This document shows, piece by piece, positions 11,868 through 40,268 of a stretch of DNA of 64,000 nucleotides (the first letter of the stretch is position 1; every line of letters starts with the position of its first letter). Under the pieces are notes generated by a model. That model saw only the letters and a program-made list of their open reading frames with translations, did not search any database and had not been told where the DNA came from. Source of the DNA: Hyphococcus sp. (GTDB lineage Bacteria > Pseudomonadota > Alphaproteobacteria > Caulobacterales > Parvularculaceae); NCBI GenBank assembly GCA_021776335.1, contig JAJFGB010000011.1, forward strand, positions 372,001-436,000, written 5' to 3'. The position numbers were made by a program, and so were the translations under genes.

Positions 11868-12098
11868 TTCGATTGCTCGAACCGAAAACCGCGGGAATTT
11901 ATTAAAAACTGTTTAAATTCCCCCTTCCCATATTTTAAGAAAGTTTCATTCCCAATTGTAGTTTTAACGGGCCGCAGCGGGATAGATTAAGCCTTTGTCA
12001 GTTATCAAAGCCTATCAAATTGTATTAACCTTAATGCTGCGCCGCGACATTGGGCGTTGTTTTAAGTGTTTTGGCATGATTGAGCGGCAGGTAGTTTG

Positions 12099-22135: not shown

Positions 22136-25100
22136 TTAAGCGTCCGCTGCGAAAGCGCTGTCTTGTGGTTTGACAACGCGATAAACGCAAGTTCGCCAAT
22201 TTGCCCCTACACGCGCAACAAACTCCACTTTTTCAAGTTCTGTGTCCACAAATCGCGTCACGTCTGGCCAATCCTCTGCGGCGTAGTCGTCAATAATAAT
22301 ATAGCCGCCCATGCGGACCATGGGCGCATAGTTGTCGAAATCTGCTTTAACGCCGGCATAGGAGTGATCACCGTCTATAATGAGGACGTCGTATTCGCGT
22401 GAGCGCGCTTCTTCTACTGCCTCAATCTCCGTACTCAGTTTTTTAATCAGTGTGAAACTCTCATCCGCCATGCCGACACGATTAAGGTTATGTCGAAGCA
22501 TTTCTTCGTTCACTGGTTGGCCAGTCAAAACATCGTTCTGAACAGAAGAATAGTACCCGTCGAGCGGGTCAAGCAAAGTGAAGTGGACGGAGTCAAAATA
22601 TGGCGCCAAGGCGTCATACATGATTGCAGCGCCGGTTCCGAAAAGGGTTCCAATTTCCAACAACTGGATTTCTCGGTTCTCGACGCCTCGACTGACGATA
22701 GTTCGCAAGAGGACATCTTCTATGGACGTCGCCAAACGTCCGGACAACATTGTTTCTACCTCACAGGCGCGGCTGGCCATATAGCCAAGCTCTGGCTCGG
22801 TCATTTTGACGGAAAGGCGCCGGCTCCATTCCTTGTCGATAATTTCGATATGTTCCTGTTTGAGCTGCCGGTTAAACCGCTGAAACCAAATAGAATTGTT
22901 TGGCGTCTTGCTCATTTTTGCATCGAAATCTCTCAGGCGACTGCTGGTCTGCGTTTTCTGTCCCTCGAGTTCCTGTGTAAACTCCTCGCGCAACGCGGTT
23001 AGTGCGTCAGACAGGTGTGTCGAGGTTTGCGCAGCCCGCTCATCAATATCGCGGAGCCTTTCTGTAAGCGCTGAGACGCGTTTGCCTTCTGCGGCAACCG
23101 CCGGAGACAGGAAAGCTGTCTGTCGTCGAGCAGCGTCTGACTGCTTTCTTACTTCCCCTAAAGCGGCGGTAACTTTATTAAGTGCACGTTGGGCGTCCTG
23201 TTTTTCAGCTGCAAGACGTTCCGTGATCGCGTAGATGCGGAATGCAAGATAGGCAATGGCCAACACTAGTGCTGAAAATACCGCGCCCCCCCACAAAATC
23301 GTTCGATAGGCAGTATACGCCGGATGCAGGCCAATGGCGACCACACTGACAAGCGTGAAAAGCACCGGCAAAGTCCACACTTTCCGACGCGACATGTGGC
23401 CAAGAATCCGCTTTGCGAAACGCAATAGCGAAAACAGTCGCGGTGAGCGCCGATGCACAAAGTGAGCTATGTGGGTTATGGCTGAGGGGAAGGGGTGCGC
23501 TGTCATGACGTCCTCGGTTGCGGGTTTTGCAGTCGGCTTTGCGGTGCGCCTTTTAAGGAGCGCACCAAACGCATCGCTGACTGCTTTGTATCCGGGATCC
23601 TCTCGAAACGCCAAGATGTTACCCCAGGCGTCGTTCGCCATATCGGCCCCTGGAAACGGAACGATGCGTCGCCAATCGTGCGGTATGCCGTAACGGATGA
23701 TCGGGTGCCATTCACTGAGATAAACGGCGTAACCTTTTTGTCTCAGAAATTCGGCGACGTCGCGCCATGTATGACCCATCGAGGCGGTTTTGGCGTCTTC
23801 AAATTCACATTCGACGACATCAGGCGTTAATTTCCCCCAGGGTACGCCCTTGATAACGGAATAGTCAAAACCCTCGACATCGATCTTGAGAAAATCCACA
23901 TGTTTGATCCCATGCGCCGCCACGATTTCGGCGACGGTGGTGACGTCCACTAGCCCGGATTCTCGATGCGTTTTGCGAAAAGCATGAAGGCCACTTATGC
24001 CAGTACTTTCTTTGGAAGAATAAAACGACACTCCCTTTGCTGGTTTATCGCTAACCGCACGGGCGTCGATTGTTACATTTTTTGACACACCAAACGATTC
24101 GATGAGCTTTTCGCGATTTTTGGCGTCAGGCTCAAAACAGTGAACGGTCCAGCTCAGCCGGTCAAAATATTTCGCTGAACTTCCGTGATGCGCACCGACG
24201 TCGAGCATGACATGGTCACGACCCCTACGCTTCTCTAGAAGATGCGCGACGACCGCAGTCTCATCAACATGAGCATGCTGGTCACGGGAAGTATCGACAG
24301 TATCAAAGCCCGACGGCTCCGCTGCCTTTTTTATCGAAGCTGTGAAACTGGCGCTAATTTTTTTGATATCGAACTCCTCAAATGCCGTTTGTTGCGCTTT
24401 CTGTGCGAGCGTAAATCGTTTTTCTGTTGAGGCGGCAAGGTCAGCAAGAGAGTTTTTCACAAGCGTAACCCTATTTTCCGTAATCCTTGCGCCACAATCA
24501 AGCTTTTCAAGCAAGCTCATTGTAGCCCCATCCGCTGGGCCGACGGCAAGGAGCGCGGCGCCGCTGGCAAGACATTCGGGCAGTTTATTGGCGACCGAAT
24601 AGCGCACATAGTTCGTCGAGGCATCGTCGAAATTATACGCGATCACGATAATATCAGCAGCAGATAACCAGTCGCGGTATTCCGACATGCTAAAGTCTGT
24701 CGTAACGAAATGCGTGTGCGAAAGGGACTCGAAATGAGCGGCGGCGGCCTGATGCCACAGTTCCCGGGTTTTGATTTCAAAGATGATGTCGATCCCGTCC
24801 GCAGCGAGGCTCTCGACTGCCTCAGCAACTAAACGCACCGAGTGCAAAGTCATGTTTTCCGCAAGAGAGCCCGCATAGCGAACCCGTACTGATCCTACCG
24901 CTGCGCGTCGCACGACTTTCAACCAATCCTTTGGGTCGACACCATTTGCAAAGTGGGCGAATGGCGCACCGTAACGCGCACTGAACGCGGCAGACATCTT
25001 TTCGCCGATGCTAAGGCGCAACTTGGCCTGCTGAACGAGTGATCGCCAATCCGCTTCAAGTCGTTCGAAGGCCTTGTTTTCGGTCGTCTCTTGGGCGGCC

Positions 25101-28100
25101 GGCCAGTCATCCATGATCCAGGTAATTAGCGGCAGTTCTGACTTTTTAATTATCTCCATCGCGAATTCGTGCAACGCCACCGTTCCTGGCGTTGGTCTGT
25201 AGATTATTGCGTCGGGGCGAAACGCCGTAATGCGTTTTTCGATTTCATTGGCGGCGATGAGTGTAGGCGGACTGAGGGCTCCACCGGTCGCCTTCTCGCT
25301 CACACAGACGTTGTCGAAGCCGCCGTCAAATATCTGAAAAAGGCGATCTGCCGGCCAGTCATGAAGCAGTGATGCCTTCAACTCGCCCGTTGCTGTGGCG
25401 TCGCCGATGCGTGTTAGATCAATCAACAGCAGGCGGGGGAGGGGATGGGATGTGTAAAATATCGCATCATAGTCGACCCGCGGAAATACTTCGAGCTTTC
25501 CGCCAACTGTAGCATTTATGATCTCGACCCCGCGTTCCTTGCTGGCGGCGTTCGCTTTTTTATATGCTGCGCGCATCACTTTCACATTCGGTTCGTGCCA
25601 GCGCTTGCCCTTACCAAAATAATCGACATGGAAATGATTAGGATCGTCTGACGGCATATCAATTTCTTTGACCTTGCCGGTTCCGGAAAGTTCCGCATCT
25701 TTAGGAATGGCATAATCGGCATCGACCCCTATCAGGTATATTTCCTCATATCCTAAATAAGCGGCAAGTTGCATGCAGGTGAACGTTACTGTGCCCCCTG
25801 CAAATGTATTGACGTCGGCATCGAACGAGAAATCGAATCCGTCCGGATAGCTCTTGCGCGGACGGTGATCGAAATAGACTGTATTGCGATCAGGTTTAAG
25901 AATATAGCGTAGGTTCGCCGGAAAAAGTTTCGTAAACCCGCGAAGCAGATTAATCTCATGCGCACGATCTTCAGCAACGAGATGGTCTTCAACGACGTAA
26001 TAAGTTGGCGCCCAGTCAAGCTCTGGTAGTTTCAGAAAAAAACCATTCGTTGCGAATGTCGTTTCACCCTTTAGTTTTGACAGGTCCGTGCTGTTGAGGC
26101 TGGGTCCATTTCCGATAATGAAACAGCGTTTGTGCCGACGCGATTCCTTCAGTGAACGGATTAGCGGTCGGTATACTGTGTCCAGCTCTTGATCGTATAG
26201 GTCGACAACGTTGCGCAAGCCGTCAATTTGCTGCGGATGTGGAATCCTGTTCGTAGGCAGGAAAATAGGGGATCTAAGATTGGACGGCAGTTGCCCGATA
26301 ATATCATTCTTCGCGCCTTCGGAGATATCGGCGCTTAAGTCGATTTTGGGAGGCTCTTTATCTGTGTTTATCTCAACGATCTCATCGATGAGACGGGACC
26401 AGGAATGTGACTCTAGATATTCAATTCGGGCGGTTGCTGCGCGCGAGGAGTAATCATTGTAGTTGCCAATAATTTTAAGGACCGCATCAGCGATACTTTT
26501 GGCGTTTGCATCGGCCGCTATACCAAACCCCTGGCTCTCGACCAAATCGCCAAGCCAGGTCTCCTTCAGGGCCACCACGGGGCGACCGAGTATCATTGAA
26601 TCAATAACGAGACCGGATGTTCTGGAGGAAAAATGGGATTTGAGATAAGGGCATACAATTATATCACCGCTCTCAAGAAATTCGCGAAACTGATTATTTT
26701 CGAATGTTTTGCTTACCAGTTCGGCCTTCGTGTCCTTTAAGCCGCCCAATATCTTAAGACCCGCTTTGGTGGCGTTGTTTCGATTCGCGCGCACCTTAAG
26801 AGAAAGCGTTTCAGCCGCGCCAAGAAGTTTGACCGTAGCAGCAGTAAGGCCAACCCCCTTTTCTACCAGCGCCCCCCCGGGAAACAGAACAGTCAGCTTT
26901 TGGCTAATCTTGCTCGGTGCAGACTTTGAATATTCGTACGCAGCATTGTCGGAAAATGTTGTGCTCGGGTGCGGGGCAGTTTCAAGTGAAATGCCAAAAT
27001 GGTGCTGTATCCCTTTCCGCAGCGTCTCCGAGGGAACAGTTAAGGTGATGCGATCGCTCGCCGTCAGAGTCGCAATGAGCGGTCGCCAGCGATTTAAGTA
27101 CCGCACCTCCTCGTAAGTAACGCGTGAATGCCAAAACAAATTAATGTTGGCGTAGATATTGTCAAATTTGCAAATTACCGAATGAATTGCATATGCGTGT
27201 TCAAGGCTGCCGCAATAGAGATACAGGGTGACCGGTTTGCGGCTGCTAGGGAAATTGATTCTCAAAGCTTGCTCAAGCTCAGACATAAACTGATCTGTCT
27301 TTGGCGCCCGACCCCCGCTTAATTGCGTGCCTATAGACCAGCTATTAACTGTAAAACATCTGACGATCTGGATTTCTGATGGTAATGTGTCCGCTTCGAT
27401 ATCCTCGCGGCCGAACAACGTAAAGTTTACTTTTTTGTCCCGACATGTTTCCCAAATACGCCTGTCGTAAGAGAGAAAGTGCCCCGAATTGTTGATGCCA
27501 TCCGGGTCGAGCACGACCACGTGACCTTCGCAGTCTTCGATTTGACGGCTTGCTGATGAAAGGGTGTCATTTTGCGCGGTTTCGCCGTCGCTTCTTGGCC
27601 CGCGAGCTGCGAGGGAGGGAACATAGGACGGGGTCAGTACACTGATCGTTCGTCCGGCCTGTTCCAGCGCAGAGACGGCAAGTTCAACATTCTTGCAGTG
27701 CTCGTCATAGTAATCATCGTAGTCAACGCCAAAGAATGCTGGGTGTACGAGTTTGATGTTCTCCATCTCATCATTAAATTGTACAGCCTTGTCGTGCCCC
27801 CAAAAATACTGATTCTCGCTGCGTGGCCGACCGTCACAACCGACGATACATATTTCTTCCGCCGCCGCACCGGCTAGCGGAAGCAACAATAAGGTAAGGA
27901 TGTTCGCGAGTGGTTGAACGTAGAATTCCTTTGACAAATCTGCGTTGAAAGGCGCTTTGCTATTGAATGGAACACCAATAACGCGCTCGCGAAGGTCATC
28001 CGGCAAATATGATACAAAGACGTTGTAGTCTCGAAGTGATGTGATGAAATAGGATCCATGCTTGCGCATCGCGTAGATGAGTTCCTTGCGAAACGCGGCG

Positions 28101-28795
28101 GCATATCTTGAGCACCCCGCATGGAAGATCGGATCGGCTGCAACAATTGCGACAGGCTTCAATTTTTCAAGCAAGTCATGGTTTTTGACCATCGAGTTAG
28201 ATACAAAACAATGGCCGTCGGAAAAATCGTGTCGCGCGGCGAATGAAGAAAGGCTTGGTCCAGTGCCAAAGACGTATGCGCGTTTTCGGTTGGGAAGCGA
28301 CTCAAGAAACTTTTGGAATTTTGTTTTATTCAAAGAGGTCAGTGCCGCGCTGTCAGCAAAAACATTCAACCCCGCCCACAGGTAGAATGACCCTTCCATT
28401 CGGGTTTTTGTTGGGTCAACTTCAAAATGTCGACCGACCTTCTTCATTCGCGTGATAAGTGCGTCTTCGGCGTACGCTTTGAGCGCCGGGTCGCCGGCGC
28501 GCCAGATAAAGAGTGCATCCGCTTTACTGAACAGGTCGTTGCGTTCTTCCGCAGTCATTTCAGATTGGTCATCAAACCTGAACAGGTTAGCGATTTCTTT
28601 GGCGTTTTCAGCGAGGCCTGGGTCATAAAGATCTGGCACATCGCCAATCGAACCCGGCAGCGCGCAATCCTGCAAAAAAACGCGAATTTCACCGATCTGA
28701 CTTCGATACGGATAAAGATACCAGCTTGCCCGCGCGATGATGTCAGCAAGCTCCTGAGGGCTCCGTACGGCCGGAAGAAAAACCAGATTGACCAT
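22136..28795 (-). CDS. Giant multidomain glycan protein: DUF115-GT-DUF115-GT-FkbM-TM-coil-MTase
   Basis: One uninterrupted 2219-residue frame. Domains: (1) 1-400, DUF115/MptE-like, FGTGPSL 176-182 and IVGCDGRP 317-324; (2) about 420-810, GT-B/GT4-like, PGGALVEKGVGL 639-650 and SSRTSGLVIDSMILGRPVVA 723-742; (3) about 840-1118, second DUF115, IIGNGPSL 893-900, N917, LIGVDADY 1021-1028; (4) about 1119-1490, second GT-B, ITWIMDDWP and NGVDPKDW; (5) about 1505-1735, FkbM methyltransferase, LDVGAHHGSS 1531-1540 and KIDVEGFD 1637-1644; (6) two TM helices 1805-1823 and 1832-1857; (7) coiled coil about 1858-1985; (8) 2000-2215, Methyltransf_24-like, LLEIGTLFGTGA 2045-2056 and DGDHSYAGVKADF 2141-2153. 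Domains 1-5 are probably cytoplasmic. I infer a membrane-tethered enzyme that builds, methylates and perhaps caps a surface glycan. The ATG at 28795 is the first possible start (in-frame TGA just upstream); its Shine-Dalgarno is weak. Exact acceptor and sugars unknown. Confidence 0.85.
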   Translation of the reverse strand: MVNLVFLPAVRSPQELADIIARASWYLYPYRSQIGEIRVFLQDCALPGSIGDVPDLYDPGLAENAKEIANLFRFDDQSEMTAEERNDLFSKADALFIWRAGDPALKAYAEDALITRMKKVGRHFEVDPTKTRMEGSFYLWAGLNVFADSAALTSLNKTKFQKFLESLPNRKRAYVFGTGPSLSSFAARHDFSDGHCFVSNSMVKNHDLLEKLKPVAIVAADPIFHAGCSRYAAAFRKELIYAMRKHGSYFITSLRDYNVFVSYLPDDLRERVIGVPFNSKAPFNADLSKEFYVQPLANILTLLLLPLAGAAAEEICIVGCDGRPRSENQYFWGHDKAVQFNDEMENIKLVHPAFFGVDYDDYYDEHCKNVELAVSALEQAGRTISVLTPSYVPSLAARGPRSDGETAQNDTLSSASRQIEDCEGHVVVLDPDGINNSGHFLSYDRRIWETCRDKKVNFTLFGREDIEADTLPSEIQIVRCFTVNSWSIGTQLSGGRAPKTDQFMSELEQALRINFPSSRKPVTLYLYCGSLEHAYAIHSVICKFDNIYANINLFWHSRVTYEEVRYLNRWRPLIATLTASDRITLTVPSETLRKGIQHHFGISLETAPHPSTTFSDNAAYEYSKSAPSKISQKLTVLFPGGALVEKGVGLTAATVKLLGAAETLSLKVRANRNNATKAGLKILGGLKDTKAELVSKTFENNQFREFLESGDIIVCPYLKSHFSSRTSGLVIDSMILGRPVVALKETWLGDLVESQGFGIAADANAKSIADAVLKIIGNYNDYSSRAATARIEYLESHSWSRLIDEIVEINTDKEPPKIDLSADISEGAKNDIIGQLPSNLRSPIFLPTNRIPHPQQIDGLRNVVDLYDQELDTVYRPLIRSLKESRRHKRCFIIGNGPSLNSTDLSKLKGETTFATNGFFLKLPELDWAPTYYVVEDHLVAEDRAHEINLLRGFTKLFPANLRYILKPDRNTVYFDHRPRKSYPDGFDFSFDADVNTFAGGTVTFTCMQLAAYLGYEEIYLIGVDADYAIPKDAELSGTGKVKEIDMPSDDPNHFHVDYFGKGKRWHEPNVKVMRAAYKKANAASKERGVEIINATVGGKLEVFPRVDYDAIFYTSHPLPRLLLIDLTRIGDATATGELKASLLHDWPADRLFQIFDGGFDNVCVSEKATGGALSPPTLIAANEIEKRITAFRPDAIIYRPTPGTVALHEFAMEIIKKSELPLITWIMDDWPAAQETTENKAFERLEADWRSLVQQAKLRLSIGEKMSAAFSARYGAPFAHFANGVDPKDWLKVVRRAAVGSVRVRYAGSLAENMTLHSVRLVAEAVESLAADGIDIIFEIKTRELWHQAAAAHFESLSHTHFVTTDFSMSEYRDWLSAADIIVIAYNFDDASTNYVRYSVANKLPECLASGAALLAVGPADGATMSLLEKLDCGARITENRVTLVKNSLADLAASTEKRFTLAQKAQQTAFEEFDIKKISASFTASIKKAAEPSGFDTVDTSRDQHAHVDETAVVAHLLEKRRGRDHVMLDVGAHHGSSAKYFDRLSWTVHCFEPDAKNREKLIESFGVSKNVTIDARAVSDKPAKGVSFYSSKESTGISGLHAFRKTHRESGLVDVTTVAEIVAAHGIKHVDFLKIDVEGFDYSVIKGVPWGKLTPDVVECEFEDAKTASMGHTWRDVAEFLRQKGYAVYLSEWHPIIRYGIPHDWRRIVPFPGADMANDAWGNILAFREDPGYKAVSDAFGALLKRRTAKPTAKPATEDVMTAHPFPSAITHIAHFVHRRSPRLFSLLRFAKRILGHMSRRKVWTLPVLFTLVSVVAIGLHPAYTAYRTILWGGAVFSALVLAIAYLAFRIYAITERLAAEKQDAQRALNKVTAALGEVRKQSDAARRQTAFLSPAVAAEGKRVSALTERLRDIDERAAQTSTHLSDALTALREEFTQELEGQKTQTSSRLRDFDAKMSKTPNNSIWFQRFNRQLKQEHIEIIDKEWSRRLSVKMTEPELGYMASRACEVETMLSGRLATSIEDVLLRTIVSRGVENREIQLLEIGTLFGTGAAIMYDALAPYFDSVHFTLLDPLDGYYSSVQNDVLTGQPVNEEMLRHNLNRVGMADESFTLIKKLSTEIEAVEEARSREYDVLIIDGDHSYAGVKADFDNYAPMVRMGGYIIIDDYAAEDWPDVTRFVDTELEKVEFVARVGANWRTCVYRVVKPQDSAFAADA

Positions 28796-29050
28796 GGATG
28801 GGGGGACTCACTACCTTTTATGGATTTTGCGCGATTTGGCCCACGCAGTGCGCTATTTTTGACCGGTATAATATTGATCCTCGATAGCAGCGCTTTGTGT
28901 TTGTTAGCAACCCGTTCCTGGGGCGGGCTGAACCCACGGCCATGGCCCTGATCGGCCTATTCGCTTGATTTCGTGGGCATCGTCGGGCAAGACCTAGCTT
29001 TTCCAACATCGTGCAACCGCTTGGCGGCACACAGATTCAGGCCGGGGATA

Positions 29051-30124
29051 ATGACTGCCAAAACAGCCCTCATTACTGGTGTTACGGGCCAGGACGGCGC
29101 CTATCTTGCGCAATTCCTTCTCGACAAGGGATATGTGGTCCACGGCGTCAAGAGGCGTTCGTCTTCTTTTAATACTGCGCGCATTGATGAACTTTATGCT
29201 GACCCACATGAGCACGCGACCCGGTTTTTCCTGCATTACGGTGATCTGACGGATGCAACCAACCTCATCCGGCTGGTTCAGGAAACGAAACCTGACGAGA
29301 TCTACAATCTCGCGGCGCAGAGCCATGTGCAGGTCAGTTTCGAAACGCCTGAATATACCGGTAACGCCGACGCACTAGGGACGCTGCGTATTCTGGAAGC
29401 GATCCGTATTCTTGGATTCGAAAAATCGACGCGTTTCTACCAAGCTTCGACTTCGGAGCTATATGGCAAGGTTCAGGAGGTTCCTCAGACTGAAACGACA
29501 CCCTTCTATCCGCGCTCGCCTTACGCTGCCGCTAAACTCTATGCATACTGGATTACGGTCAACTACCGCGAAGCCTATGGCATGCACGCCTCGAACGGAA
29601 TTTTGTTCAATCATGAAGGCCCGACACGGGGCGAAACTTTCGTCACCCGGAAGGTCACTCGCGCTGTCGCGGCAATTGAAAAGGGACTCCAGAAGACGCT
29701 CTATCTCGGTAACCTCGACGCCAAACGCGACTGGGGCCATGCGCGTGATTATGTCGAAGGCATGTGGATGATGACGCAGCAGGAGGAGTCTGGCGATTAT
29801 GTATTGGCGACTGGCGAAACCCATTCGGTTCGGGAATTCGTTGAGCTTGCTTTCGCCGAGACGGGACGCCGAATTGCCTGGGAGGGCGAGGGTGTTGAGG
29901 AAATCGGGAGGGATGCAAAGACAAGCGAAGCTCTGGTCAAGATCGATCCGCGCTATTTCCGGCCGACCGAAGTGGACTTGCTGATAGGCGATCCCAGCAA
30001 GGCGAAAGCAAAACTGGGCTGGGAGACGAAGGTGACATTCGCTGAGCTGGTTAAAGAAATGGTTCAGTTCGACCTTGTCGAGGTTGAGCGTGAGGTTTGG
30101 CGCAAAGACCGGAGCGCTCGTTAA
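29051..30124 (+). CDS. gmd: GDP-mannose 4,6-dehydratase
   Basis: A 357-residue short-chain dehydrogenase-type enzyme that converts GDP-mannose to GDP-4-keto-6-deoxymannose. The NAD(P) motif is [13 protein letters not shown] at the N-terminus. [16 protein letters not shown], then [14 protein letters not shown] with the catalytic YxxxK, and [20 protein letters not shown] are all diagnostic for Gmd. The ATG at 29051 follows a GGGG element, and the longer open frame upstream is not supported. It ends two bases before the fcl start, forming a GDP-fucose operon divergent from the giant glycan gene. Confidence 0.96.
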
Positions 30125-30125
30125 T

Positions 30126-31085
30126 ATGCCTGAATGCTTTGTTCTGAGTGGTAAGCGCGTTTTTGTCGCCGGGCATAAAGGCATGGTTGGCGCTGCCGTT
30201 GTTAGGCGACTTGAACAGGAAAACTGTGACGTCGTAATCGCTGGGCGCGATCAGCTGGACTTGCTCGATCAGGCGGCTGTGCGAATATTTTGCGCTGACC
30301 ATAATCTAGATGCAGTGATCCTGGCGGCCGCAAAAGTCGGCGGTATTTTGGCAAACGATACCTATCCGGCCGACTTTCTCTATGAAAACCTGACGATAGA
30401 AACGAATGTAATAGAGGGGGCATTCCGCGCCGGCGTTGAAAAGTTGCTCTTTCTTGGCTCGTCCTGCATCTACCCGAAATTCGCCTCGCAACCAATATCA
30501 GAGAGTGCGCTTTTGACGGGCGCCCTCGAGCCCACCAACGAGTGGTATGCCATTGCTAAAATTGCCGGGCTGAAGCTTTGCGAGGCTTACCGCAAACAAC
30601 ATGGCGTAGATTTTATCTCGGCCATGCCTACAAATTTATATGGACCGGGCGATAATTTCGATTTGCAAAATTCGCATGTTATCCCGGCCCTACTTCGAAA
30701 GGCGCACGAGGCTAAACACCGCGGCGAAAATAGTCTTGAGATTTGGGGCTCCGGAACGCCAAGACGTGAATTTCTCCACGTTGACGATTGCGCCGACGCA
30801 CTTGTGTTCTTGCTGAAGAATTATTCGGGTACAGAGCATGTAAATGTTGGTGTCGGTTCAGATGTTGCGATCGCGGAGCTTGCGCAGATTATTATGGATG
30901 CTGTTGGCCTCAACGGGTCCCTCATGTTTGATAGTTCAAAGCCCGACGGCACGCCGCAAAAGCTTCTATCAGTGGAAAAGATTGCGGAATTGGGGTGGCG
31001 TCCACGCATCGAGCTTCGGGACGGCCTTTTGTCGACATATCAGTGGTTTGTTGAGCATCAAAATGATGCGCATTTGCGACGCTAA
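30126..31085 (+). CDS. fcl: GDP-L-fucose synthase
   Basis: A 319-residue epimerase-reductase that turns GDP-4-keto-6-deoxymannose into GDP-L-fucose with NADPH. VFVAGHKGMVGAAVVRRLE is the cofactor fold, SSCIYPKFASQPISE carries the catalytic Ser/Cys region, YAIAKIAGLKLCEAYR has YxxxK, and NLYGPGDNFDLQNSHVIPA is typical of Fcl/WcaG. The ATG at 30126 lies one base after the gmd stop. With gmd it supplies GDP-fucose to the glycosyltransferases of this locus; which enzyme uses it is not shown. Confidence 0.96.
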   Translation: MPECFVLSGKRVFVAGHKGMVGAAVVRRLEQENCDVVIAGRDQLDLLDQAAVRIFCADHNLDAVILAAAKVGGILANDTYPADFLYENLTIETNVIEGAFRAGVEKLLFLGSSCIYPKFASQPISESALLTGALEPTNEWYAIAKIAGLKLCEAYRKQHGVDFISAMPTNLYGPGDNFDLQNSHVIPALLRKAHEAKHRGENSLEIWGSGTPRREFLHVDDCADALVFLLKNYSGTEHVNVGVGSDVAIAELAQIIMDAVGLNGSLMFDSSKPDGTPQKLLSVEKIAELGWRPRIELRDGLLSTYQWFVEHQNDAHLRR

Positions 31086-31168: not shown

Positions 31169-32428
31169 CTACTGTCTCTCAATTAGATTCCATTGATGGG
31201 GAATGGTCACGACACCCCAAGTCGGATGTCCCGCATTCTCAATAACCAGGTCCGGGTTTGGATTTCGATAAAGAAATTCCGCCCCGTCAAGGATTGTCAT
31301 CATTGATTTCAAAGTCCCTGGATTAGCGATTCCGCCCCTGATTTCGAGAAGAAACTTAAGTCTTTCCCCTGTGCGCACGCTAAGCTCTTCAGAGGCAAGC
31401 TGAGTCGACAATCCCGTTGTATAATGAGCGTTTAAGTTCCACACCGGCACGCCGAGGATGAGACGTTTTATGTCGACAGTCGACGTAAATTCCAATGATA
31501 GATGTACATTGTCAGAGAATGCTATGTTCGTAACCGGCGCGCCGCTCTCATCGCACCAGAAGTGAGCAACGTCTTTAAGGGCGCCGCTGTTTGTGAAAGT
31601 GGGGCCCATGGCCTTCGTGAGTTGAGCTGGCGTATCTACCGCGGAAGCCGGCTCGTCCAAAGACTCGTAAATCTCGATGGCCTCCTTTGGCGGGCCTTCG
31701 AAGTGGATTTTCCCCTTGTGTAAGACAATTACGCGATCACAAAATAAGGCAATATCGCCCATTCCATGAGAGACGAATACGAATGCACTGCGCTCTCTCA
31801 TTTCGCGGATGCGCGCCAGGCATTTTTGCCGGAATCGAAAGTCGCCGACCGCCAAAACCTCGTCGATAAACAAGACATCCGGTTCTACAATTGCCATGAC
31901 AGAAAATGCCAGGCGCATTTTCATCCCAGAGGAATAACTCGACATTGGCGCTGCGATAGCATCGCCCAACTCCGAGAATTCAATTATTTCATTCAATCGG
32001 TGCTCGGTTTGAGCGCGCGTAAAGCCTAATGCTGCGGCGCGCAAAAAGATATTTTCTTGGCCTGACGCCGAGGCCTGAAACCCGGCTTGGAGATCAATCA
32101 TGGCCGCGGATGATCCGTTAATCCAAACCTCTCCGCCGTCAGGCAAAATCTGGCCAGCGAGAATGCGCAAGAAGGTAGTCTTGCCGGAACCATTAAGGCC
32201 AATTATGCCAAGTGCTTCGCCTTGGTGCAATTCGCAAGAAATGTCTTTGAGGGCCCAAAATTCATGTTTGCGCAAAGACTGTATTTCTTTCGGGGGCCGT
32301 CCAAAAAGCACGCGCCCCGCAACTTCGCCAAGGCGCGCGCGGGTGTCTGAAGACCTGCGTGCATAGAGCTTGCTCAGTCCTGTCGCCCTTAATACAGGTT
32401 CACCCAATTCATAGAGTGGTGAGCTCAT
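31169..32428 (-). CDS. wzt: Polysaccharide ABC exporter ATPase with C-terminal Wzt domain
   Basis: A 419-residue protein. The ATPase domain has Walker A GLNGSGKT at 77-84, the signature YSSGM and Walker B DVLFIDEVLAVGD, the phrases of the KpsT/Wzt/TagH group. After about residue 260 comes a ~150-residue beta-rich Wzt-type C-terminal domain (FSDNVHLSLEFTSTVDIKRL; HPTWGVVTIPHQWN). In O9a-like systems this domain recognises the modified end of the finished chain. The ATG at 32428 overlaps the permease stop as ATGA and has a GAGGA upstream; the upstream open frame is discarded. The transporter exports lipid-linked glycan to the periplasm. Confidence 0.93.
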   Translation of the reverse strand: MSSPLYELGEPVLRATGLSKLYARRSSDTRARLGEVAGRVLFGRPPKEIQSLRKHEFWALKDISCELHQGEALGIIGLNGSGKTTFLRILAGQILPDGGEVWINGSSAAMIDLQAGFQASASGQENIFLRAAALGFTRAQTEHRLNEIIEFSELGDAIAAPMSSYSSGMKMRLAFSVMAIVEPDVLFIDEVLAVGDFRFRQKCLARIREMRERSAFVFVSHGMGDIALFCDRVIVLHKGKIHFEGPPKEAIEIYESLDEPASAVDTPAQLTKAMGPTFTNSGALKDVAHFWCDESGAPVTNIAFSDNVHLSLEFTSTVDIKRLILGVPVWNLNAHYTTGLSTQLASEELSVRTGERLKFLLEIRGGIANPGTLKSMMTILDGAEFLYRNPNPDLVIENAGHPTWGVVTIPHQWNLIERQ

Positions 32429-33303
32429 TCTGACGATCCTCTTATCCGGTACTCCATCAAATAAAAGAACCAGGCTGAATAGAGAAACAAAATGACGCCG
32501 ACCACTGTCCACGCAGCAAGTGCGCCGGGTTGAGAAATCGATCCAGCGAATGCGGCTTCACGGGCGCTGGAAATGAATACATTGAAAGGGTTTGCAGCAC
32601 TCAAACTAACCAACGGACCAAGAGATGCCAGCGGAAATATTACGCCACTCAGAAAGATTCCGTATTGAAGAAGGATAGTGATGACGCGCTCTATATCACG
32701 ATAAATTACGTTTAGAATAGATAATAGTAATCCGAGGCCGAGACAAAAAATACTGGCCGATAAGATAATCGGAACGATAAAGAGCGCCGTCCATTTAGTC
32801 GCCGCTTGCATCGCCAAAATAATGACTACGACAAGCGCAATGCGCACGAAGGTATCAAAGCACAATTGTGCGAAAGATGACACAATTGCCGCGGAAAGCG
32901 GAATCGCAGTTTTCATCATCTCCGTGTTTTTTGATTTTACAACCTGAATCGGTTGCCTGATTAGACCGGTCAGAAGAAACCAGATTGTGACATTGAAGCT
33001 GATATATACAGCGGGGGATAACCCCTCATATCGCGGCATGATTCGAAGGCTTACAAGCATGATATAAACGGAAATCGGCACCATAGGCAGGACAAAATTC
33101 CAAAAAATGCCGAGTACGGTGCCGCGATATCCTTTGCGAAAGTCGCTTGTGAATAACGTTGTGATGTGGGAACGGAAATTTCTAATTTCGCGCGAAATGG
33201 AAATGACGGCCTGCAACCCGTTTTGTCTAATGCGGCTGTCTGGCCGGTAGATGCGAACTCCTTTCGCTCGTTCCTTTCGTGTGTTTAAGAGCTTCTCGGT
33301 CAT
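32425..33303 (-). CDS. wzm: Polysaccharide ABC exporter permease
   Basis: A 292-residue ABC-2-type permease with six hydrophobic helices, from about residue 60 to the C-terminus. DFRKGYRGTVLGIFWNFVLPM and LNVIYRDIERVITILLQYGIFLSGVIFP-like phrases are typical of Wzm/KpsM/TagG permeases of polysaccharide exporters. It overlaps its ATPase partner by four bases and is preceded on the same strand by the membrane-bound DUF115-type gene 125 bases upstream. Thus the exporter and a candidate sugar transferase may share a transcript. Confidence 0.92.
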   Translation of the reverse strand: MTEKLLNTRKERAKGVRIYRPDSRIRQNGLQAVISISREIRNFRSHITTLFTSDFRKGYRGTVLGIFWNFVLPMVPISVYIMLVSLRIMPRYEGLSPAVYISFNVTIWFLLTGLIRQPIQVVKSKNTEMMKTAIPLSAAIVSSFAQLCFDTFVRIALVVVIILAMQAATKWTALFIVPIILSASIFCLGLGLLLSILNVIYRDIERVITILLQYGIFLSGVIFPLASLGPLVSLSAANPFNVFISSAREAAFAGSISQPGALAAWTVVGVILFLYSAWFFYLMEYRIRGSSE

Positions 33304-33427: not shown

Positions 33428-34528
33428 TTATTCATTTTTCTTATTCGTTATATGGCGTTTGTTAAGGTCACGGACACTTGCCTCCAGCGACGCGATCTTT
33501 TCATGTTGCTGACTGATGTGCGTTATACTCGTATTGCGCGTAAATAATAATGCGAGCCACAAAGAGCCAGCAAAGAAAATAATGACGGTTAGCAGAGCTA
33601 AAATCCCAGCGTCAATTTCGAACGCTCGAGTGATCGCGTATGCTGTCAGGATGTAAATTGCTATTGGTGAAAAGCATAAGATCCAATTGCTTCGAATAAA
33701 GTTCACGAGGCGTTGAGCGCGACCTATGTTTGGTGGTCCGCTGGTGTTGTGCGCGCATGCGATCTCCTCACTAGTGATCAGTTCATCTGCGGGCAGTATA
33801 TCGCTTCCATCACAAAGAAGTTTTTTGAAATTAACAAAAGGAAAACACCGCACGGACGAATTGAAATTGCCGTTGTAGACAGTGGCTTTTTCTTTTTGCA
33901 AAAGCGCTGCAGTGGTTCGCAGGGCTTTCATATGTAGGCCAGGCCTCGGGTTGGGGATGTTGTATCGGTCGCCTGGTTGCTGGTAGTCCTCAAAAAAATA
34001 ATTTGGATTTGAAGTGGGTTGGCTTACAATTTCCAGCTCTGTTCCTTCGCGTCGGACGGCGCCTTCCACGCGCTCCTGATATTGGCCATCAATGCCGAGG
34101 AGGATTATTTTGTGGTATCCTTCGATCGCGGCCCATAGAACTGTGTGACTGCCAGTGGTTATGGCGGGTGATTGTAGCAGTTTTTCCGTTGCTTTTAGAG
34201 CGTCAAAATTTACGACACGAGGATCCGCTGCGATGTCGCCAAGAGCCTCTATAAGGTTCGCGCGTAACAAAAACTTTGTGACAATGCCCTCCTGGATCAA
34301 GTCAGCAATGGCTTCCTTGTGCGATAAGCCGACGACAAGATCGAGACAGGCATAATGGGTTGGGCGCCACTCAATCTTATGCCAATGTCTGTATGCGGCG
34401 TTCATGCCAATTGTGCTGAATGGCGTTAGGTCATCAAAATCTACTGCGGCCAGAGAGGGGCCGTTACCTAGAACGAAAATGGTCGACCCATCCGCCTTTA
34501 CGGGCGCTGGACCATTATGATTCTCCAT
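33428..34528 (-). CDS. Membrane DUF115/GT42-like protein with coiled-coil tail
   Basis: A 366-residue protein. Residues 15-235 form a DUF115/MptE-like domain: FVLGNGPSL (18-26), GMNAAYRHW (41-49) and TTGSHTVLW...LLGIDGQY (124-150). This is the third copy of the fold in the locus; N22 and N43 sit where GT42 sialyltransferases place two CMP-contacting Asn. The region that reads HFHVDYFGKGKRWH in the giant protein reads NYFFEDYQQPGDRYN here, so the histidines are lost. Two TM helices (about 282-300 and 308-330) and a short coiled coil (335-358) follow. Likely a membrane-tethered sugar transferase or a regulator of one. It lies upstream of wzm/wzt on the same strand. Confidence 0.75.
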   Translation of the reverse strand: MENHNGPAPVKADGSTIFVLGNGPSLAAVDFDDLTPFSTIGMNAAYRHWHKIEWRPTHYACLDLVVGLSHKEAIADLIQEGIVTKFLLRANLIEALGDIAADPRVVNFDALKATEKLLQSPAITTGSHTVLWAAIEGYHKIILLGIDGQYQERVEGAVRREGTELEIVSQPTSNPNYFFEDYQQPGDRYNIPNPRPGLHMKALRTTAALLQKEKATVYNGNFNSSVRCFPFVNFKKLLCDGSDILPADELITSEEIACAHNTSGPPNIGRAQRLVNFIRSNWILCFSPIAIYILTAYAITRAFEIDAGILALLTVIIFFAGSLWLALLFTRNTSITHISQQHEKIASLEASVRDLNKRHITNKKNE

Positions 34529-35010: not shown

Positions 35011-35994
35011 ATGTCGCAGATTCTGGAAAAACCGAAAGTCTCGGTCGTTTTTCGGTCGCTGAATGAAGAAAAATGGTTCGGCGCTGCGCTGGAGGCGTGC
35101 AGCCAGCAAATTTGCGACGACTTCACCTATGAGATCGTGCTCGTCGACTCCGGCTCCACCGATCGGACGGTGGAAATCGCCAAATCTCACGGCGTACGCG
35201 TTATTTACATAGAAAAATCCGAATTCACATTTGGACGGTCGTTGAATCTGGGCTGCGAAGCCGCCGAAGGAGATTACTTGGTGTTTATCTCCGCGCATTG
35301 CATCCCTACGCATCGCTACTGGCTGCGGAATCTAATTGGCCCGTTACGGAATGGTGTGGCTGATTACGTGTACGGCAAACAGGTCGGGCATGAGGTTACG
35401 CGTTACTCAGAGCATCAAATTTTCGCGCAGTATTACGGCCCCGTTGACATAATTCCCCAACATGAGGTGTTTTGTAATAATGCCAATGCGGCAATTTCTA
35501 AGAAACTATGGACACAATATCACTTTGATGAATCGGTCACGGGGCTCGAGGATCTGGTATTAGCAAAACTGGTCATTGGCGACGGTGGGCGGCTGGCTTA
35601 TGTTGAAGACGCGCCTGTTGCGCATATCCACGAAGAGACTTTTACGCAGATACGCAGGCGTTACTATCGAGAAGCTTTGACGTTGCGTGAAATATTCCCC
35701 GAGGTTCAATTCAACTTTGGAGATTTCTTACGTTATTTTGCGGCGGGAGTGTTCCATGACTTATCAGAGGCACTAAATGAAAAATGTTTTATAAGCACAG
35801 CGCCCGAGATCTTTATATTTCGATTTATGCAATTTTGGGGGACCTATAGGGGGCATAATGAGCATCGTGAGCTGTCCAAAGCTCAGAAGGAAAGTTACTA
35901 TTATCCTCGCTCTCAGCGAAACAAAAAAACTGCCAGCCCGCCTGGCGAGAACGGTGCGATTTTGAACCGCCACGACAGCGCGACGACAAAGTAA
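35011..35994 (+). CDS. Glycosyltransferase family 2
   Basis: A 327-residue GT-A enzyme. VSVVFRSLNEEKWFGAALEA and EIVLVDSGSTDRTVEIA are the nucleotide-binding half, FISAHCIPTHRYWL replaces the usual DxD with an SAHCIP element common in one GT2 subgroup, and FDESVTGLEDLVLAKLVI holds the catalytic-base ED. The C-terminal tail is basic and unstructured. It heads a co-directional run of five genes with a CMP-sugar synthetase homologue, so it may act on or next to that sugar. The donor is unknown. Confidence 0.85.
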   Translation: MSQILEKPKVSVVFRSLNEEKWFGAALEACSQQICDDFTYEIVLVDSGSTDRTVEIAKSHGVRVIYIEKSEFTFGRSLNLGCEAAEGDYLVFISAHCIPTHRYWLRNLIGPLRNGVADYVYGKQVGHEVTRYSEHQIFAQYYGPVDIIPQHEVFCNNANAAISKKLWTQYHFDESVTGLEDLVLAKLVIGDGGRLAYVEDAPVAHIHEETFTQIRRRYYREALTLREIFPEVQFNFGDFLRYFAAGVFHDLSEALNEKCFISTAPEIFIFRFMQFWGTYRGHNEHRELSKAQKESYYYPRSQRNKKTASPPGENGAILNRHDSATTK

Positions 35995-36016: not shown

Positions 36017-36736
36017 ATGACAGTTAACTCAAAGCGTCTGACCGCGTTGTTGCCAATGAAGGCTCATAGCGCCCGTGTTAAGTCGAAAAACTTTCGCGAA
36101 ATCGCCGGCAAGCCGCTGTTTCGCTGGATTTTAGATTCGCTTGCTGCAGTTTCGCAGATTGATGACATTGTCATCAACACCGATGCTCGCAGTATCCTGG
36201 CGGACAATGGGCTGCGCGATGGTGACTACAACGGTAAAATACATATTCGCGATCGAAAGCCGGAAATTTGCGGTGATTTTGTATCCATGAATTTGGTGAT
36301 TGCTGATGACATCGAAAACACAAAATCAGATTATTATTTGATGACGCACACCACGAACCCTTTGCTTGGCGCCGAGACGATAGGTCGAATGATAGAAGAA
36401 TTCAGCCGCGCAGAGCGAACGGATGAAGCGGATTCGCTCTTCACGGTAACGCGCCATCATACCCGCTTTTACACTCCTGAAGGGAATCCCATAAATCACG
36501 ATCCTGCTAATCTCATTCGCACGCAGGACCTTCCCCCGTATTTCGAGGAGAATTCGCTCTGCTATCTTTTTACACCGGAGAGCTTTGCGCACACAAAGGC
36601 GCGAATTGGCGAAACGCCAAAATTGTTTGAGACGCCGCAACTCGAGTCGGTTGATATTGACGAGCCCGATGACTGGTTTATCGCTGAGTCATTGTTAATG
36701 CGAGTTGCCGCTGGTGAAACCCTGCAGGGAAACTAA
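36017..36736 (+). CDS. CMP-sugar synthetase homologue (acylneuraminate cytidylyltransferase family)
   Basis: A 239-residue nucleotidyltransferase of the NeuA/KdsB family, which activates acidic sugars as CMP derivatives. LLPMKAHSARVKSKNFREI is the CTP-binding motif I, GKPLFRWILDSL follows, and ESVDIDEPDDWFIAE near the C-terminus is the conserved metal-site DEPDDW phrase. It is not a standard NeuA: no NeuB (sialic-, legionaminic- or pseudaminic-acid synthase) is nearby. The next genes encode a 2-hydroxyacid dehydrogenase, an SDR and an SMP-30 lactonase, which suggests another acidic or oxidised sugar. Its product could feed the DUF115-type domains. Confidence 0.85.
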   Translation: MTVNSKRLTALLPMKAHSARVKSKNFREIAGKPLFRWILDSLAAVSQIDDIVINTDARSILADNGLRDGDYNGKIHIRDRKPEICGDFVSMNLVIADDIENTKSDYYLMTHTTNPLLGAETIGRMIEEFSRAERTDEADSLFTVTRHHTRFYTPEGNPINHDPANLIRTQDLPPYFEENSLCYLFTPESFAHTKARIGETPKLFETPQLESVDIDEPDDWFIAESLLMRVAAGETLQGN

Positions 36737-36739
36737 GTT

Positions 36740-37687
36740 ATGGCGCGCTTGAAAGTTTTTGTTACTTGTCCGCCAATGCTTGGCCTCATCGATGAATTCA
36801 CGGCTGATTTTGAAAAGCGGGGCCTTGAATGCGTTCCTGCTGAAGTTAGTCAGGTTATGGCGGAGGCAGACCTTATTGAGCAGGTGCCGCTTTATGACGG
36901 ATGGATCATCGGTGATGATCCCGCTACACGCAAAGTTGTGGAAACGGGCGCCGCCGGCAATCTGAGAGCAGCCGTAAAATGGGGGATAGGCGTCGATAAC
37001 ATTGATTTTTCAGCGTTTCAGGATTGCGGTGTGCCGATCGACAACACCCCGGGCATGTTTGGCAATGAAGTTGCGGATGTCGCCCTGACTTACACACTTG
37101 GACTTGCCCGTGAGACTTACAGGATTGACCGACAGATCCGCGAACGAAACGCGTGGCCGAAGCCGTCAGGCGTCAGTATGGCGAGTAAGACAGTCGCCAT
37201 AGTGGGGTTCGGCGATATCGGACGCGAAACTGCGCGGCGCATTCTGGCATGCAGCGCTAAAGTGGTGGCCTATGATCCGCTTTTTCAACCCGTCGAAGGG
37301 TTGCCCGTTGAAAACGCAGCTTGGCCGGAGCGAATCGAAGAGGCCGATTTCATCATCTTCACCTGCCCACTTAACGACAATACACGCGGCATGTTCGACG
37401 CCGGACTTCTGGACCGCCTGAAGCGCGGCGTTCGCGTGGTCAATGTGTCGCGCGGGCCAGTTATCCGAGAGGCGGCACTCGTTGAAGCGCTTGAAAATGG
37501 CATCGTTCATTCCGCAGCGCTTGATGTATTTGAAATAGAACCGCTACCGCAAGAATCCCCGTTGCGCCGTTTTGATAAATGCATTTTCGGTTCCCATAAT
37601 GGTTCTAATTCGGTTGATGCGGTGCGCCGCGTCAGTCATCTTGCTATTGAGAAAATCGCTGGTTTTTTAAGTGGTGCGCAGGAATGA
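36740..37687 (+). CDS. D-isomer-specific 2-hydroxyacid dehydrogenase
   Basis: A 315-residue NAD-dependent dehydrogenase of the SerA/glyoxylate-reductase family. The split substrate domain encloses the Rossmann domain with VAIVGFGDIGRETARRI. Catalytic residues sit in NVSRGPVIREAAL (Arg) and FGSHNGSN (His), with the intervening Glu in FEIEPLPQESPL. NTPGMFGNEVADVALTYTLG is family-typical. It starts three bases after the cytidylyltransferase and overlaps the next SDR gene by four bases, so it works in the same pathway. The substrate is probably an acidic sugar or precursor; this is inference. Confidence 0.88.
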   Translation: MARLKVFVTCPPMLGLIDEFTADFEKRGLECVPAEVSQVMAEADLIEQVPLYDGWIIGDDPATRKVVETGAAGNLRAAVKWGIGVDNIDFSAFQDCGVPIDNTPGMFGNEVADVALTYTLGLARETYRIDRQIRERNAWPKPSGVSMASKTVAIVGFGDIGRETARRILACSAKVVAYDPLFQPVEGLPVENAAWPERIEEADFIIFTCPLNDNTRGMFDAGLLDRLKRGVRVVNVSRGPVIREAALVEALENGIVHSAALDVFEIEPLPQESPLRRFDKCIFGSHNGSNSVDAVRRVSHLAIEKIAGFLSGAQE

Positions 37688-38427: not shown

Positions 38428-38430
38428 ATT

Positions 38431-39988: not shown

Positions 39989-40219
39989 ATGATTTAGTCT
40001 TACCGTTCTGATCTTCAGCTCAATACCGTTGCGGCCAATCTTTACGCCAAACGCCTCATTGCCCGATTAATATACAAATCTGAGCGGTCTATAATGCCGA
40101 TTCGCAGAAAATTTTGCGGTTAGGCCGGTGTGAGATTGTGTCGTTTCGGCAGGTGCGGCATTTCTCCCCATATGGATGTCAAAATCCATGAAACCCGGAG
40201 GGGGTGGAAAGTTTTCTAT
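39989..40219. other. Upstream region of rfbC and nrdB
   Basis: About 230 bases between divergent genes before the candidate NrdR boxes. A TATAAT sits at 40090-40095, without a good -35 at normal distance. No gene is seen. Confidence 0.4.
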
Positions 40220-40268
40220 ACCACGACATCTTGCGTTTTTTATCTCTATGGGCTCAAGATGCTGTGGT
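40220..40268 (+). promoter_or_regulatory. Candidate NrdR box pair upstream of nrdB
   Basis: Two 16-base elements, ACCACGACATCTTGCG (40220-40235) and CTCAAGATGCTGTGGT (40253-40268), are reverse complements at 13 of 16 positions. Their starts are 33 bases apart, close to three helical turns. NrdR represses ribonucleotide reductase genes through paired 16-base boxes spaced about 31-32 bases, so this arrangement fits. They lie 52-100 bases before the nrdB start. Confidence 0.6.

What the first reader, a model, noticed from the sequence alone, without database searches (positions are those of the whole stretch)
22136..28795. 2219-residue protein combining two DUF115 domains, two GT-B domains and two methyltransferases
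One unbroken 6.66-kb frame holds, in order, DUF115/MptE-like, GT-B, DUF115/MptE-like, GT-B, FkbM methyltransferase, two TM helices, a coiled coil and a Methyltransf_24-like domain. Each enzymatic domain keeps its signature motifs, so it does not look decayed. I know of no named protein with this arrangement. Inference: a single-chain, membrane-tethered glycan assembly and modification machine.
Basis: partly seen in the sequence, partly recalled or inferred. Interest (0 to 1): 0.93.

Follow-up and report, generated by a model that had tools for sequence, protein, structure and literature searches.

The report
Single giant enzyme building capped polysaccharide
A marine bacterium carries one very large membrane-anchored protein that appears to build a surface sugar polymer at one end and, across a coiled-coil spacer, cap the finished chain with a methyl group at the other; some relatives carry the same layout with the cap enzyme swapped for a sulfate-adding one, which would make the 'molecular ruler' idea of polymer length control testable in nature.

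Summary
The 6.66-kb frame is real, unbroken, and on the minus strand. Order: divergent GT42-like module (D1), GT4-like (G1), GT42/MptE-like (D2), GT4-like (G2), FkbM methyltransferase (F), TM pair, coiled coil, TylF/NovP-type sugar O-methyltransferase (M). The full order recurs in one 2302-aa chain of a Hyphomonadaceae bin; elsewhere modules are swapped or are neighbouring genes, so it is no assembly error. The locus has gmd, fcl, Wzm, a long Wzt and a PseF-like cytidylyltransferase. Best reading: a single-chain polymerase-terminator for ABC-exported polysaccharide, M capping the chain across a coiled-coil ruler. Support: M (in two relatives a sulfotransferase) sits at the coil's far end; coil length varies widely, once by 14-residue tandem repeats; Wzt_C occurs in 14 of 16 genomes with M, 3 of 20 without. 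Known logic (WbdD, WbbB, Klebsiella O7, WsaE), new arrangement: mirror order, TM anchor, GT42-like modules, apparently interchangeable caps. New variant of a known kind.

The parts
22136..28795 (-). whole 2219-aa protein P0001 (D1-G1-D2-G2-F-TM-CC-M)
27596..28795 (-). D1, aa 1-400: divergent GT42/MptE-like module, [G/C][T/S]GP instead of GNGP
   Evidence: hhalign to D2 prob. 97.4; 8 rows (window plus 7 relatives), 59 invariant columns; no Pfam or PDB match
26291..27595 (-). G1, aa 401-835: GT-B (GT4-like) module
   Evidence: PF13692 5.4e-8; profile matches WbaZ-1 2f9f 3.2e-5
25445..26290 (-). D2, aa 836-1117: GT42/Maf/MptE-like module with GNGPSL
   Evidence: PF01973 7.7e-15; profile matches CstII 5.9e-9, Maf 5mu5 1.6e-5
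24296..25444 (-). G2, aa 1118-1500: GT-B (GT4-like) module, NKLPECLASG
   Evidence: NCBIfam WcaI 2.9e-6, below cut-off; profile matches 7qsg 2.4e-4; 19-row alignment
23486..24295 (-). F, aa 1501-1770: FkbM methyltransferase
   Evidence: PF05050 1.5e-18, TIGR01444 5.1e-22; 17-row alignment
23243..23380 (-). TM pair, aa 1806-1851
   Evidence: hydropathy; same place in the 11 single-chain F-to-M proteins, though in L033 only one helix passes the threshold
22901..23230 (-). coiled coil, aa 1856-1965, proposed molecular ruler
   Evidence: hydrophobic periodicity of 3.45-3.65, 3 of 300 shuffles as high; no coiled-coil predictor or structure was available
22139..22900 (-). M, aa 1966-2219: TylF/NovP/MycE-type sugar O-methyltransferase, proposed chain terminator
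   Evidence: PF13578 2.3e-13, PF04989 4.4e-7; IDGDH...DDY aligned with NovP; invariant in 12 rows
31169..32512 (-). Wzt, ABC ATPase with C-terminal Wzt_C-like domain (below Pfam cut-off)
   Evidence: PF00005 1.2e-19, PF14524 7.9e-4, 19.9 bits against 30.4
32425..33303 (-). Wzm, ABC-2 permease
   Evidence: PF01061 7.1e-10
33428..34528 (-). small GT42-like protein with its own TM pair (aa 282-300 and 309-327) and a short tail
   Evidence: phmmer with D2 1e-14; TMs; no Pfam match
28973..30124 (+). GDP-mannose 4,6-dehydratase
   Evidence: TIGR01472 8.9e-183
30075..31085 (+). GDP-L-fucose synthase
   Evidence: NF047922 2.4e-158
35011..35994 (+). GT2 glycosyltransferase
   Evidence: PF00535 2.5e-23
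36017..36736 (+). CMP-sugar synthetase-like, PseF-like, below the equivalog cut-off
   Evidence: PF02348 8e-16; TIGR03584 4.7e-15
36740..39318 (+). 2-hydroxyacid dehydrogenase, SDR, SMP-30: genes linked to the cytidylyltransferase
   Evidence: linkage in relatives

Best explanation
The protein is a single-chain polymerase-terminator for a surface polysaccharide exported by a Wzm/Wzt ABC transporter. The N-terminal 1500 residues (two GT4-like and two GT42-like modules) build the repeat unit on a lipid carrier at the inner face of the membrane, with GDP-fucose (gmd/fcl) and a CMP-linked sugar (PseF-like synthetase) as likely donors. F methylates a repeat-unit sugar. The TM hairpin anchors the polymerase. 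The coiled coil holds M at a fixed distance from it, so that only chains long enough to reach M are O-methylated at their free end; this stops growth, and the cap is then recognised by the carbohydrate-binding tail of Wzt for export. Shown here, by sequence: the modules, their order and conservation, the coil-like stretch, the gene neighbourhood, the co-occurrence of M with Wzt_C, and a sulfotransferase in the place of M in two relatives. Inferred: every enzymatic activity, the sugars, the capping step, the ruler function and the export check.
For: (1) M lies C-terminal to the coil in 11 of 11 single-chain F-TM-CC-M proteins, in a twelfth chain found only by its M domain (G723), and in three stand-alone proteins: TM pair-coil-M of 469 aa in G032 (L070), TM-coil-M of 494 aa in G074 (L057), D1-coil-M of 891 aa in L043. 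This is the place of the terminator in the systems reviewed by Kelly et al. (PMC11231755, parts read) and in WbdD (PMC3482155, passages). (2) The slot takes another enzyme: two giants end in TM-coil-sulfotransferase (L037, PF00685 2.5e-7; G003 of the window's own genus, 5.8e-4 and below cut-off), 65% identical to each other there; L037 nests beside M-ended L026 in the F tree (97/87). (3) Wzt_C (E<=1e-3) occurs in 14 of 16 genomes with M and 3 of 20 without (Fisher 2.5e-5). (4) F-end to M-start spacing varies from 216 to 638 residues; between close relatives L033 and L044 the difference includes an 84-residue block lying in a 42-bp (two-heptad) tandem array of 7.1 copies. (5) M belongs with sugar O-methyltransferases. 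(6) The window's Wzt and Wzm are most like those of M-bearing Hyphomonadaceae (62% and 58% to L030), while gt2a, ctp, sdr and smp30 are most like those of its own genus, as if giant and transporter moved together.
Against: The held-out prediction written before looking failed in one of four points: G723 has coil and M but a 223-aa Wzt and no Wzt_C in the genome, in a locus with capsule-type genes, and it lacks FkbM. L042 has M but no Wzt_C. L034, L035 and L045 have Wzt_C without M. The window's own Wzt_C match is under the Pfam cut-off (19.9 of 30.4 bits), as are many of the others. Genomes in the table are related, so the Fisher value is too generous; the F tree gives only a few independent contrasts. 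The window's coil is short (about 110 residues). Periodicity is weak in 3 of 13 coils. L037 and G003, with sulfotransferase, have no detectable Wzt_C. Tandem arrays in coils are not always heptad multiples (L031 33, 66 and 30 bp, L053 12 bp). gmd is nearest to Hyphomonas (L023, 83%) and hadh about equally near to both, so the cassette story is not clean. No structure could be predicted.
Confidence: 0.6

Rival explanations
1. M is an internal-residue methyltransferase and the coil only holds a multi-enzyme complex together; length is set elsewhere and no cap-dependent export exists.
For: G723 and L042 have M without Wzt_C; Wzt_C of the window is sub-threshold; the small GT42-like protein in the locus also has a TM pair, so such segments could be docking elements; WsaE caps, by the passages read, independently of chain length in vitro (PMC2943079).
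Against: Where the chain beyond TM and coil has a recognisable enzyme, it is M or a sulfotransferase; F, not M, is the methyltransferase that stays with the GTs when M is absent; Wzt_C tracks M; between L033 and L044 the coil length changes while the flanking sequence hardly does.
Confidence: 0.25
2. A protein-glycosylation enzyme of the Maf kind (flagellin or S-layer), not a polysaccharide assembler.
For: D2 profile matches Maf 5mu5 at 1.6e-5 and the locus has a PseF-like cytidylyltransferase; a PEP-CTERM-like protein lies nearby at 19822-20472.
Against: Closer match to GT42 sialyltransferases (5.9e-9); four GT-like modules; gmd/fcl and Wzm/Wzt recur around it in relatives; no flagellin among the 19 neighbouring proteins scanned.
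Confidence: 0.06
3. Artefact or decaying fusion of formerly separate genes.
For: In L034, L042, L043 and L057 such modules are neighbouring separate genes; D1 lacks the Asn of GNGP.
Against: Same full order in one chain in L022, independently assembled and 44% identical in the best segment; many invariant residues in F and M over 17 and 12 rows; no stops.
Confidence: 0.01

Closest known systems
WbbB of Klebsiella O12 / Raoultella terrigena (single-chain polymerase-terminator)
   Same: Polymerase and terminator modules in one polypeptide, terminator at the distal end of a coiled coil, Wzm/Wzt export with CBM (PMC11231755, parts read).
   Different: Order reversed (there: terminator N-terminal, GTs C-terminal); cap is a Kdo added by a GT module, here a methyltransferase; here four GT-like modules, FkbM and a TM pair.
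WbdD (E. coli O9a/O8) with WbdA
   Same: Methyl-type cap, coiled-coil ruler, CBM on Wzt (PMC3482155, passages; PMC11231755).
   Different: WbdD is separate from the polymerase, has a kinase in O9a, its MTase is N-terminal, its membrane contact is an amphipathic helix.
ORF6 of Klebsiella O7
   Same: One protein with terminator methyltransferase, coil and two GT modules (PMC11231755).
   Different: Has kinase and CBM, GT2 modules at the C-terminus; no GT42-like or FkbM module described in what was read.
WsaE of Geobacillus stearothermophilus
   Same: Two GT domains and a capping methyltransferase in one protein, Wzm/Wzt locus (PMC2943079, passages).
   Different: Methyltransferase N-terminal, protein described as soluble, no coil mentioned in the passages; length control attributed to another factor.
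GT42 sialyltransferases (CstII) and Maf
   Same: D2 shares the GNGPSL stretch and a profile match of 5.9e-9.
   Different: Here a module inside a giant chain; donor unknown; D1 a divergent version without the Asn.

Membership tests
ABC-transporter-dependent polymerase-terminator with coiled-coil ruler | GT polymerase modules together with or near the terminator | tested here: met
   G1, G2, D1, D2 in the chain, as GT-like sequences
ABC-transporter-dependent polymerase-terminator with coiled-coil ruler | modifying enzyme at the distal end of an extended coiled coil | tested here: met
   by sequence only; no structure
ABC-transporter-dependent polymerase-terminator with coiled-coil ruler | Wzm/Wzt in the locus | tested here: met
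   31169-33303
ABC-transporter-dependent polymerase-terminator with coiled-coil ruler | carbohydrate-binding C-terminal domain on Wzt | tested here: inconclusive
   window 19.9 bits, below the 30.4 cut-off; 14 of 16 M-bearing genomes at E<=1e-3, many below cut-off
ABC-transporter-dependent polymerase-terminator with coiled-coil ruler | cap on the non-reducing end stops growth; coil length sets chain length | not testable with these tools
   needs chemistry and mutants
WbdD family proper | N-terminal methyltransferase, kinase (O9a), C-terminal coil with amphipathic membrane helix | tested here: not met
   methyltransferase C-terminal, no kinase in Pfam, TM pair
WbbB | N-terminal GT99 Kdo terminator, C-terminal GT pair | tested here: not met
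   opposite order, methyltransferase at the coil end
GT42/Maf-like transferases (D2) | profile similarity and GNGPSL nucleotide-binding stretch (its role recalled) | tested here: met
   GNGPSL at aa 895-900
GT42/Maf-like transferases (D2) | catalytic His (His188 of CstII, recalled) | tested here: inconclusive
   the printed alignment ends at DDPNH; exact partner not resolved
MptE pterin diphosphokinase | closer to MptE than to GT42 by profile | tested here: not met
   MptE 8sd5 E 0.24 against CstII 5.9e-9
TylF/NovP/MycE sugar O-methyltransferases (M) | profile match and acidic DGD...DDY residues (metal role recalled) | tested here: met
   PF04989 4.4e-7 over cut-off, PF05711 1.2e-4 just below it; aligned with NovP at 6.5e-4; invariant in 12 rows
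FkbM methyltransferases (F) | Pfam and TIGRFAM cut-offs | tested here: met

The most novel reading that the evidence does not exclude
Marine alphaproteobacteria carry a cassette family of one-chain polysaccharide builders in which the cap enzyme at the end of a membrane-anchored molecular ruler is interchangeable, methyltransferase in some and sulfotransferase in others, even between two genomes of one genus at the same chromosomal site (window and G003), with the transporter's cap-reading domain switching along; ruler length evolves by in-register tandem repeats. Sulfate would be a new kind of chain-terminating export tag.
Probability: 0.4. Interest if true: 0.78.

Novelty: new variant of a known kind. 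Interest (0 to 1): 0.62.

Why it matters
In the papers read here, chain-length control by a coiled-coil ruler rests on E. coli and Klebsiella systems. Here is a natural series with the same polymerase-anchor-coil-cap plan, coils differing severalfold (one by repeat units of exactly two heptads), two different enzymes in the cap place, and a transporter domain that largely tracks one of them. It offers predictions that can be read off one gel and one NMR spectrum per strain, would add sulfate to the known caps, and assigns an 'MptE-like' module of uncertain function to CMP-sugar transfer in polysaccharide synthesis.

Tried and rejected
Assembly artefact: rejected (L022). MptE pterin kinase role for D2: rejected by profile. 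WbdD or WbbB membership: rejected by order and domains. F as the terminator: rejected because F stays fused to G2 in chains without TM after F and without M (L006, L007, L008, L034, L035, L038, L040, L041). Structure prediction: two jobs failed, then the tool was off, so folds, coil oligomer and active sites rest on sequence profiles. PDB profile search with D1 gave nothing and with the two sulfotransferase ends gave nothing. Wide searches, the window's genome counted each time: F subfamily in 9 of 62 genomes of the family (E<=1e-45) and 4 of 385 of the class (1e-60); M subfamily in 1 of 385 of the class and 2 of 398 of the phylum (1e-25). Capsule_synth was tried as a marker for short-Wzt loci: found in 2 of 32 genomes (1e-10), so it does not explain most of them. 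Tandem arrays in 20 genes: 7 rows in the coils of 4 genes, of which only L022 (21 bp) and L044 (42 bp) are heptad multiples, and 4 rows elsewhere in 2 of the genes; heptad-step growth is thus shown in one clear pair only. Literature: no held paper joins FkbM, DUF115 and glycosyltransferase; searches listed none that describes this layout or a sulfotransferase terminator, judged from titles and abstract starts only; subscription journals are mostly not held.
Full report
1. What is there. The ORF at 22136..28795 lies on the minus strand and encodes 2219 aa without a stop. The genome is a 4.18-Mb assembly of 11 contigs. Its genus contains genomes with contigs equal in length to records named Marinicaulis sp. 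and Parvularcula sp. (562488, 84996 and 223489 bases), so the host is probably one of the Parvularculaceae; this is inferred.

2. Anatomy. D1 aa 1-400; G1 401-835; D2 836-1117; G2 1118-1500; F 1501-1770; TM pair 1806-1824 and 1833-1851; coil 1856-1965; M 1966-2219. Pfam finds D2 (MptE-like), G1, F and M directly. D1 is a remote relative of D2 (hhalign 97.4). The D2 profile finds GT42 sialyltransferases first (2drj 5.9e-9), then Maf (1.6e-5), and MptE only at 0.24 (the family number GT42 is recalled). G1 matches WbaZ-1 (3.2e-5) and G2 an inositol-phosphate glycosyltransferase (2.4e-4), both GT4-like (recalled). M matches TylF/MycE/NovP sugar methyltransferases weakly, with its IDGDH and DDY stretches aligned to those of NovP and their acidic residues invariant over 12 rows. 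The best-ranked PDB row for M is an AI-designed TIM barrel, which I take for chance.

3. Relatives. A scan of named genomes gave 27 loci. By segment profiles: same order in one chain in L022 (2302 aa). L024 (2320 aa) has a GT2 in place of G1. L023, L026, L030, L031, L033, L036, L039 and L044 have other N-terminal modules but keep F followed by TM, coil and M. In gammaproteobacterial bins L042 and L043 the modules are three neighbouring genes: D2 | G2-F | D1..M. In L034 and L035 they are D2 | G2-F. In G074, of the window's family, G2-F, a GT4, a TM-coil-M protein of 494 aa and D2 are separate neighbours. In G032, of the same family, a 469-aa TM pair-coil-M protein stands alone beside a chain ending in D2, Wzm and a 431-aa Wzt. 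So the giant is a fusion of parts that also occur as neighbours; the front end is exchanged while the F-TM-coil-cap end is kept.

4. The cap slot. In 11 of 11 single-chain F-TM-CC-M proteins the spacing from F to M is 216 to 638 residues. In L037 (Oceanicaulis) the same place holds a sulfotransferase (PF00685 2.5e-7), and in G003, of the window's own genus, an 1862-aa chain with FkbM, Galactosyl_T, TM pair and coil also ends in one (5.8e-4 and 0.0021 in two cuts, below cut-off), 65% identical to that of L037. In L027 and L029 sulfotransferase genes directly follow the G2-F-TM-coil gene (one of the three matches is weak, 0.0063); L028, however, is followed by an aldehyde dehydrogenase, and three FkbM chains in L025 have TM pairs and no recognisable cap enzyme. 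The F tree needs at least 2 changes of the M label on its firm branches (6 at fewest overall), and L037 nests beside M-ended L026 with support 97/87.

5. The transporter. Wzt_C at E<=1e-3 was sought in whole genomes., 26 genomes: 11 of 11 with single-chain M, 3 of 15 others (L034, L043, L045). 4 genomes: 2 (G032, L035). Pooled over 36 distinct genomes, counting as M-bearing any with an M match at 1e-10 or better in the fetched locus: 14 of 16 against 3 of 20, Fisher 2.5e-5 (before G032, L035, L048 and G453 were added it was 13 of 15 against 2 of 17). M-bearing without Wzt_C: L042, G723. M-lacking with it: L034, L035, L045; L034 and L035 are near-copies. Absence of M was judged from the fetched loci only; for G453 no locus was fetched and it is counted as lacking because the class search found M in the window's genome alone. 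L038 has only a 47-residue M fragment (2e-6) and is counted as lacking. For 10 of the 11 single-chain cases the long Wzt lies in the fetched locus, for G074 and G032 also; L031's contig ends too soon; L043's Wzt_C lies on other contigs. Many matches, the window's included, are below the Pfam cut-off. Relatedness is not corrected. Two contrasts on the F tree go the expected way (L031 with M and Wzt_C against L046 with neither; L026 against L037). Of the window's genus, seven relatives with F and without M have no Wzt_C, the window has both.

6. A held-out test. I wrote down four expectations for G723 before reading it. M at the C-terminus: yes. Coil and TM before it: yes, one TM by threshold. 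FkbM or GT upstream in the chain: GT2, no FkbM. Long Wzt with Wzt_C: no; its Wzt is 223 aa and the locus has a weak Wzz-like match and a Capsule_synth gene. So coil plus M can exist without a cap-reading Wzt. G032 was not predicted in advance but agrees.

7. The ruler. Coil length differs widely. L044 has a 42-bp array of 7.1 copies (93% match, no indels), L033 has none; the alignment shows a block of 84 residues, six times 14, present in L044 only, between otherwise very similar sequences. L022 has a 21-bp array. L031 (33, 66 and 30 bp) and L053 (12 bp) have arrays that are not heptad multiples. The window coil has none. The periodicity measure was reached by at most 4 of 300 shuffles in 10 of 13 coils; L026, L030 and L051 were weaker (21, 13, 24 of 300).

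8. The locus. gmd, fcl, Wzm, Wzt, a small GT42-like protein, GT2, a PseF-like cytidylyltransferase, a 2-hydroxyacid dehydrogenase, an SDR and SMP-30 accompany it; sets of these recur around many relatives. Left flank (type I secretion genes, GT2) and right flank (39437-41363) also enclose the G003 locus, so one chromosomal site holds a methyltransferase-ended giant in one genome and a sulfotransferase-ended one in another. The window's Wzt and Wzm are most like Hyphomonadaceae with M, its gt2a, ctp, sdr and smp30 most like its own genus; gmd is nearest to Hyphomonas and hadh about equal.

9. Known context. Kelly et al. 2024 (PMC11231755; outline, and the first parts of introduction, discussion and one results section) describe terminators at the distal end of a coiled-coil ruler, variable distribution of modules among proteins, a single-chain case (WbbB) and CBMs on Wzt. 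WbdD is from PMC3482155 (passages), WsaE from PMC2943079 (passages). The present protein follows that logic but is in mirror order, TM-anchored, uses GT42-like and FkbM modules, and belongs to a group with two cap enzymes. Papers on this layout were not found.

10. Verdict. Polysaccharide assembly by this protein is very likely; capping by M over a coil ruler is the best single mechanism, about 0.6; all enzyme activities are inferred.

Noticed in passing
window 33428-34528 (-): Small GT42-like protein without a Pfam match has its own TM pair, like the giant's anchor; it may dock on it.
   Followed up: partly
window 36017-39318 (+): Cytidylyltransferase, 2-hydroxyacid dehydrogenase, SDR and SMP-30, with a GT2, recur together in many relatives; the CMP-linked sugar they may make is unknown.
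   Followed up: partly
L051:15703-18999 and L037:9977-17125: Giant chains that end in a sulfotransferase behind TM pair and coil, 65% identical at that end.
   Followed up: yes
L070:11950-13359 (-): Stand-alone 469-aa TM pair-coil-methyltransferase protein beside Wzm and a long Wzt: a natural separate terminator of the same kind.
   Followed up: yes
L044:12294-12593: 42-bp tandem array (7.1 copies) lengthens the coil; an 84-residue block is absent from close kin L033.
   Followed up: yes
L025:9977-25259: Three FkbM-bearing proteins with TM pairs in one locus, none with a recognisable cap domain.
   Followed up: no
L045:10665-16820: A 2051-aa relative in a Verrucomicrobiota bin (Opitutales) with GT4, FkbM, MptE-like and a weak sulfotransferase match (0.009) at its end.
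   Followed up: no
window 12096-16703 (+): TolC, ABC exporter and HlyD genes (type I secretion) flank the locus and do so in G003 too.
   Followed up: partly
window 19822-20472 (+): Small protein with a weak match (8e-4, below cut-off) to a flocculation-associated PEP-CTERM protein.
   Followed up: no
L055:16230-19028 (-): RTX repeat protein (16 repeat stretches) directly beside the G2-F gene.
   Followed up: no
L028:7268-8776 (+): Phage-type integrase gene near the G2-F-TM-coil gene, a possible sign of mobility.
   Followed up: no
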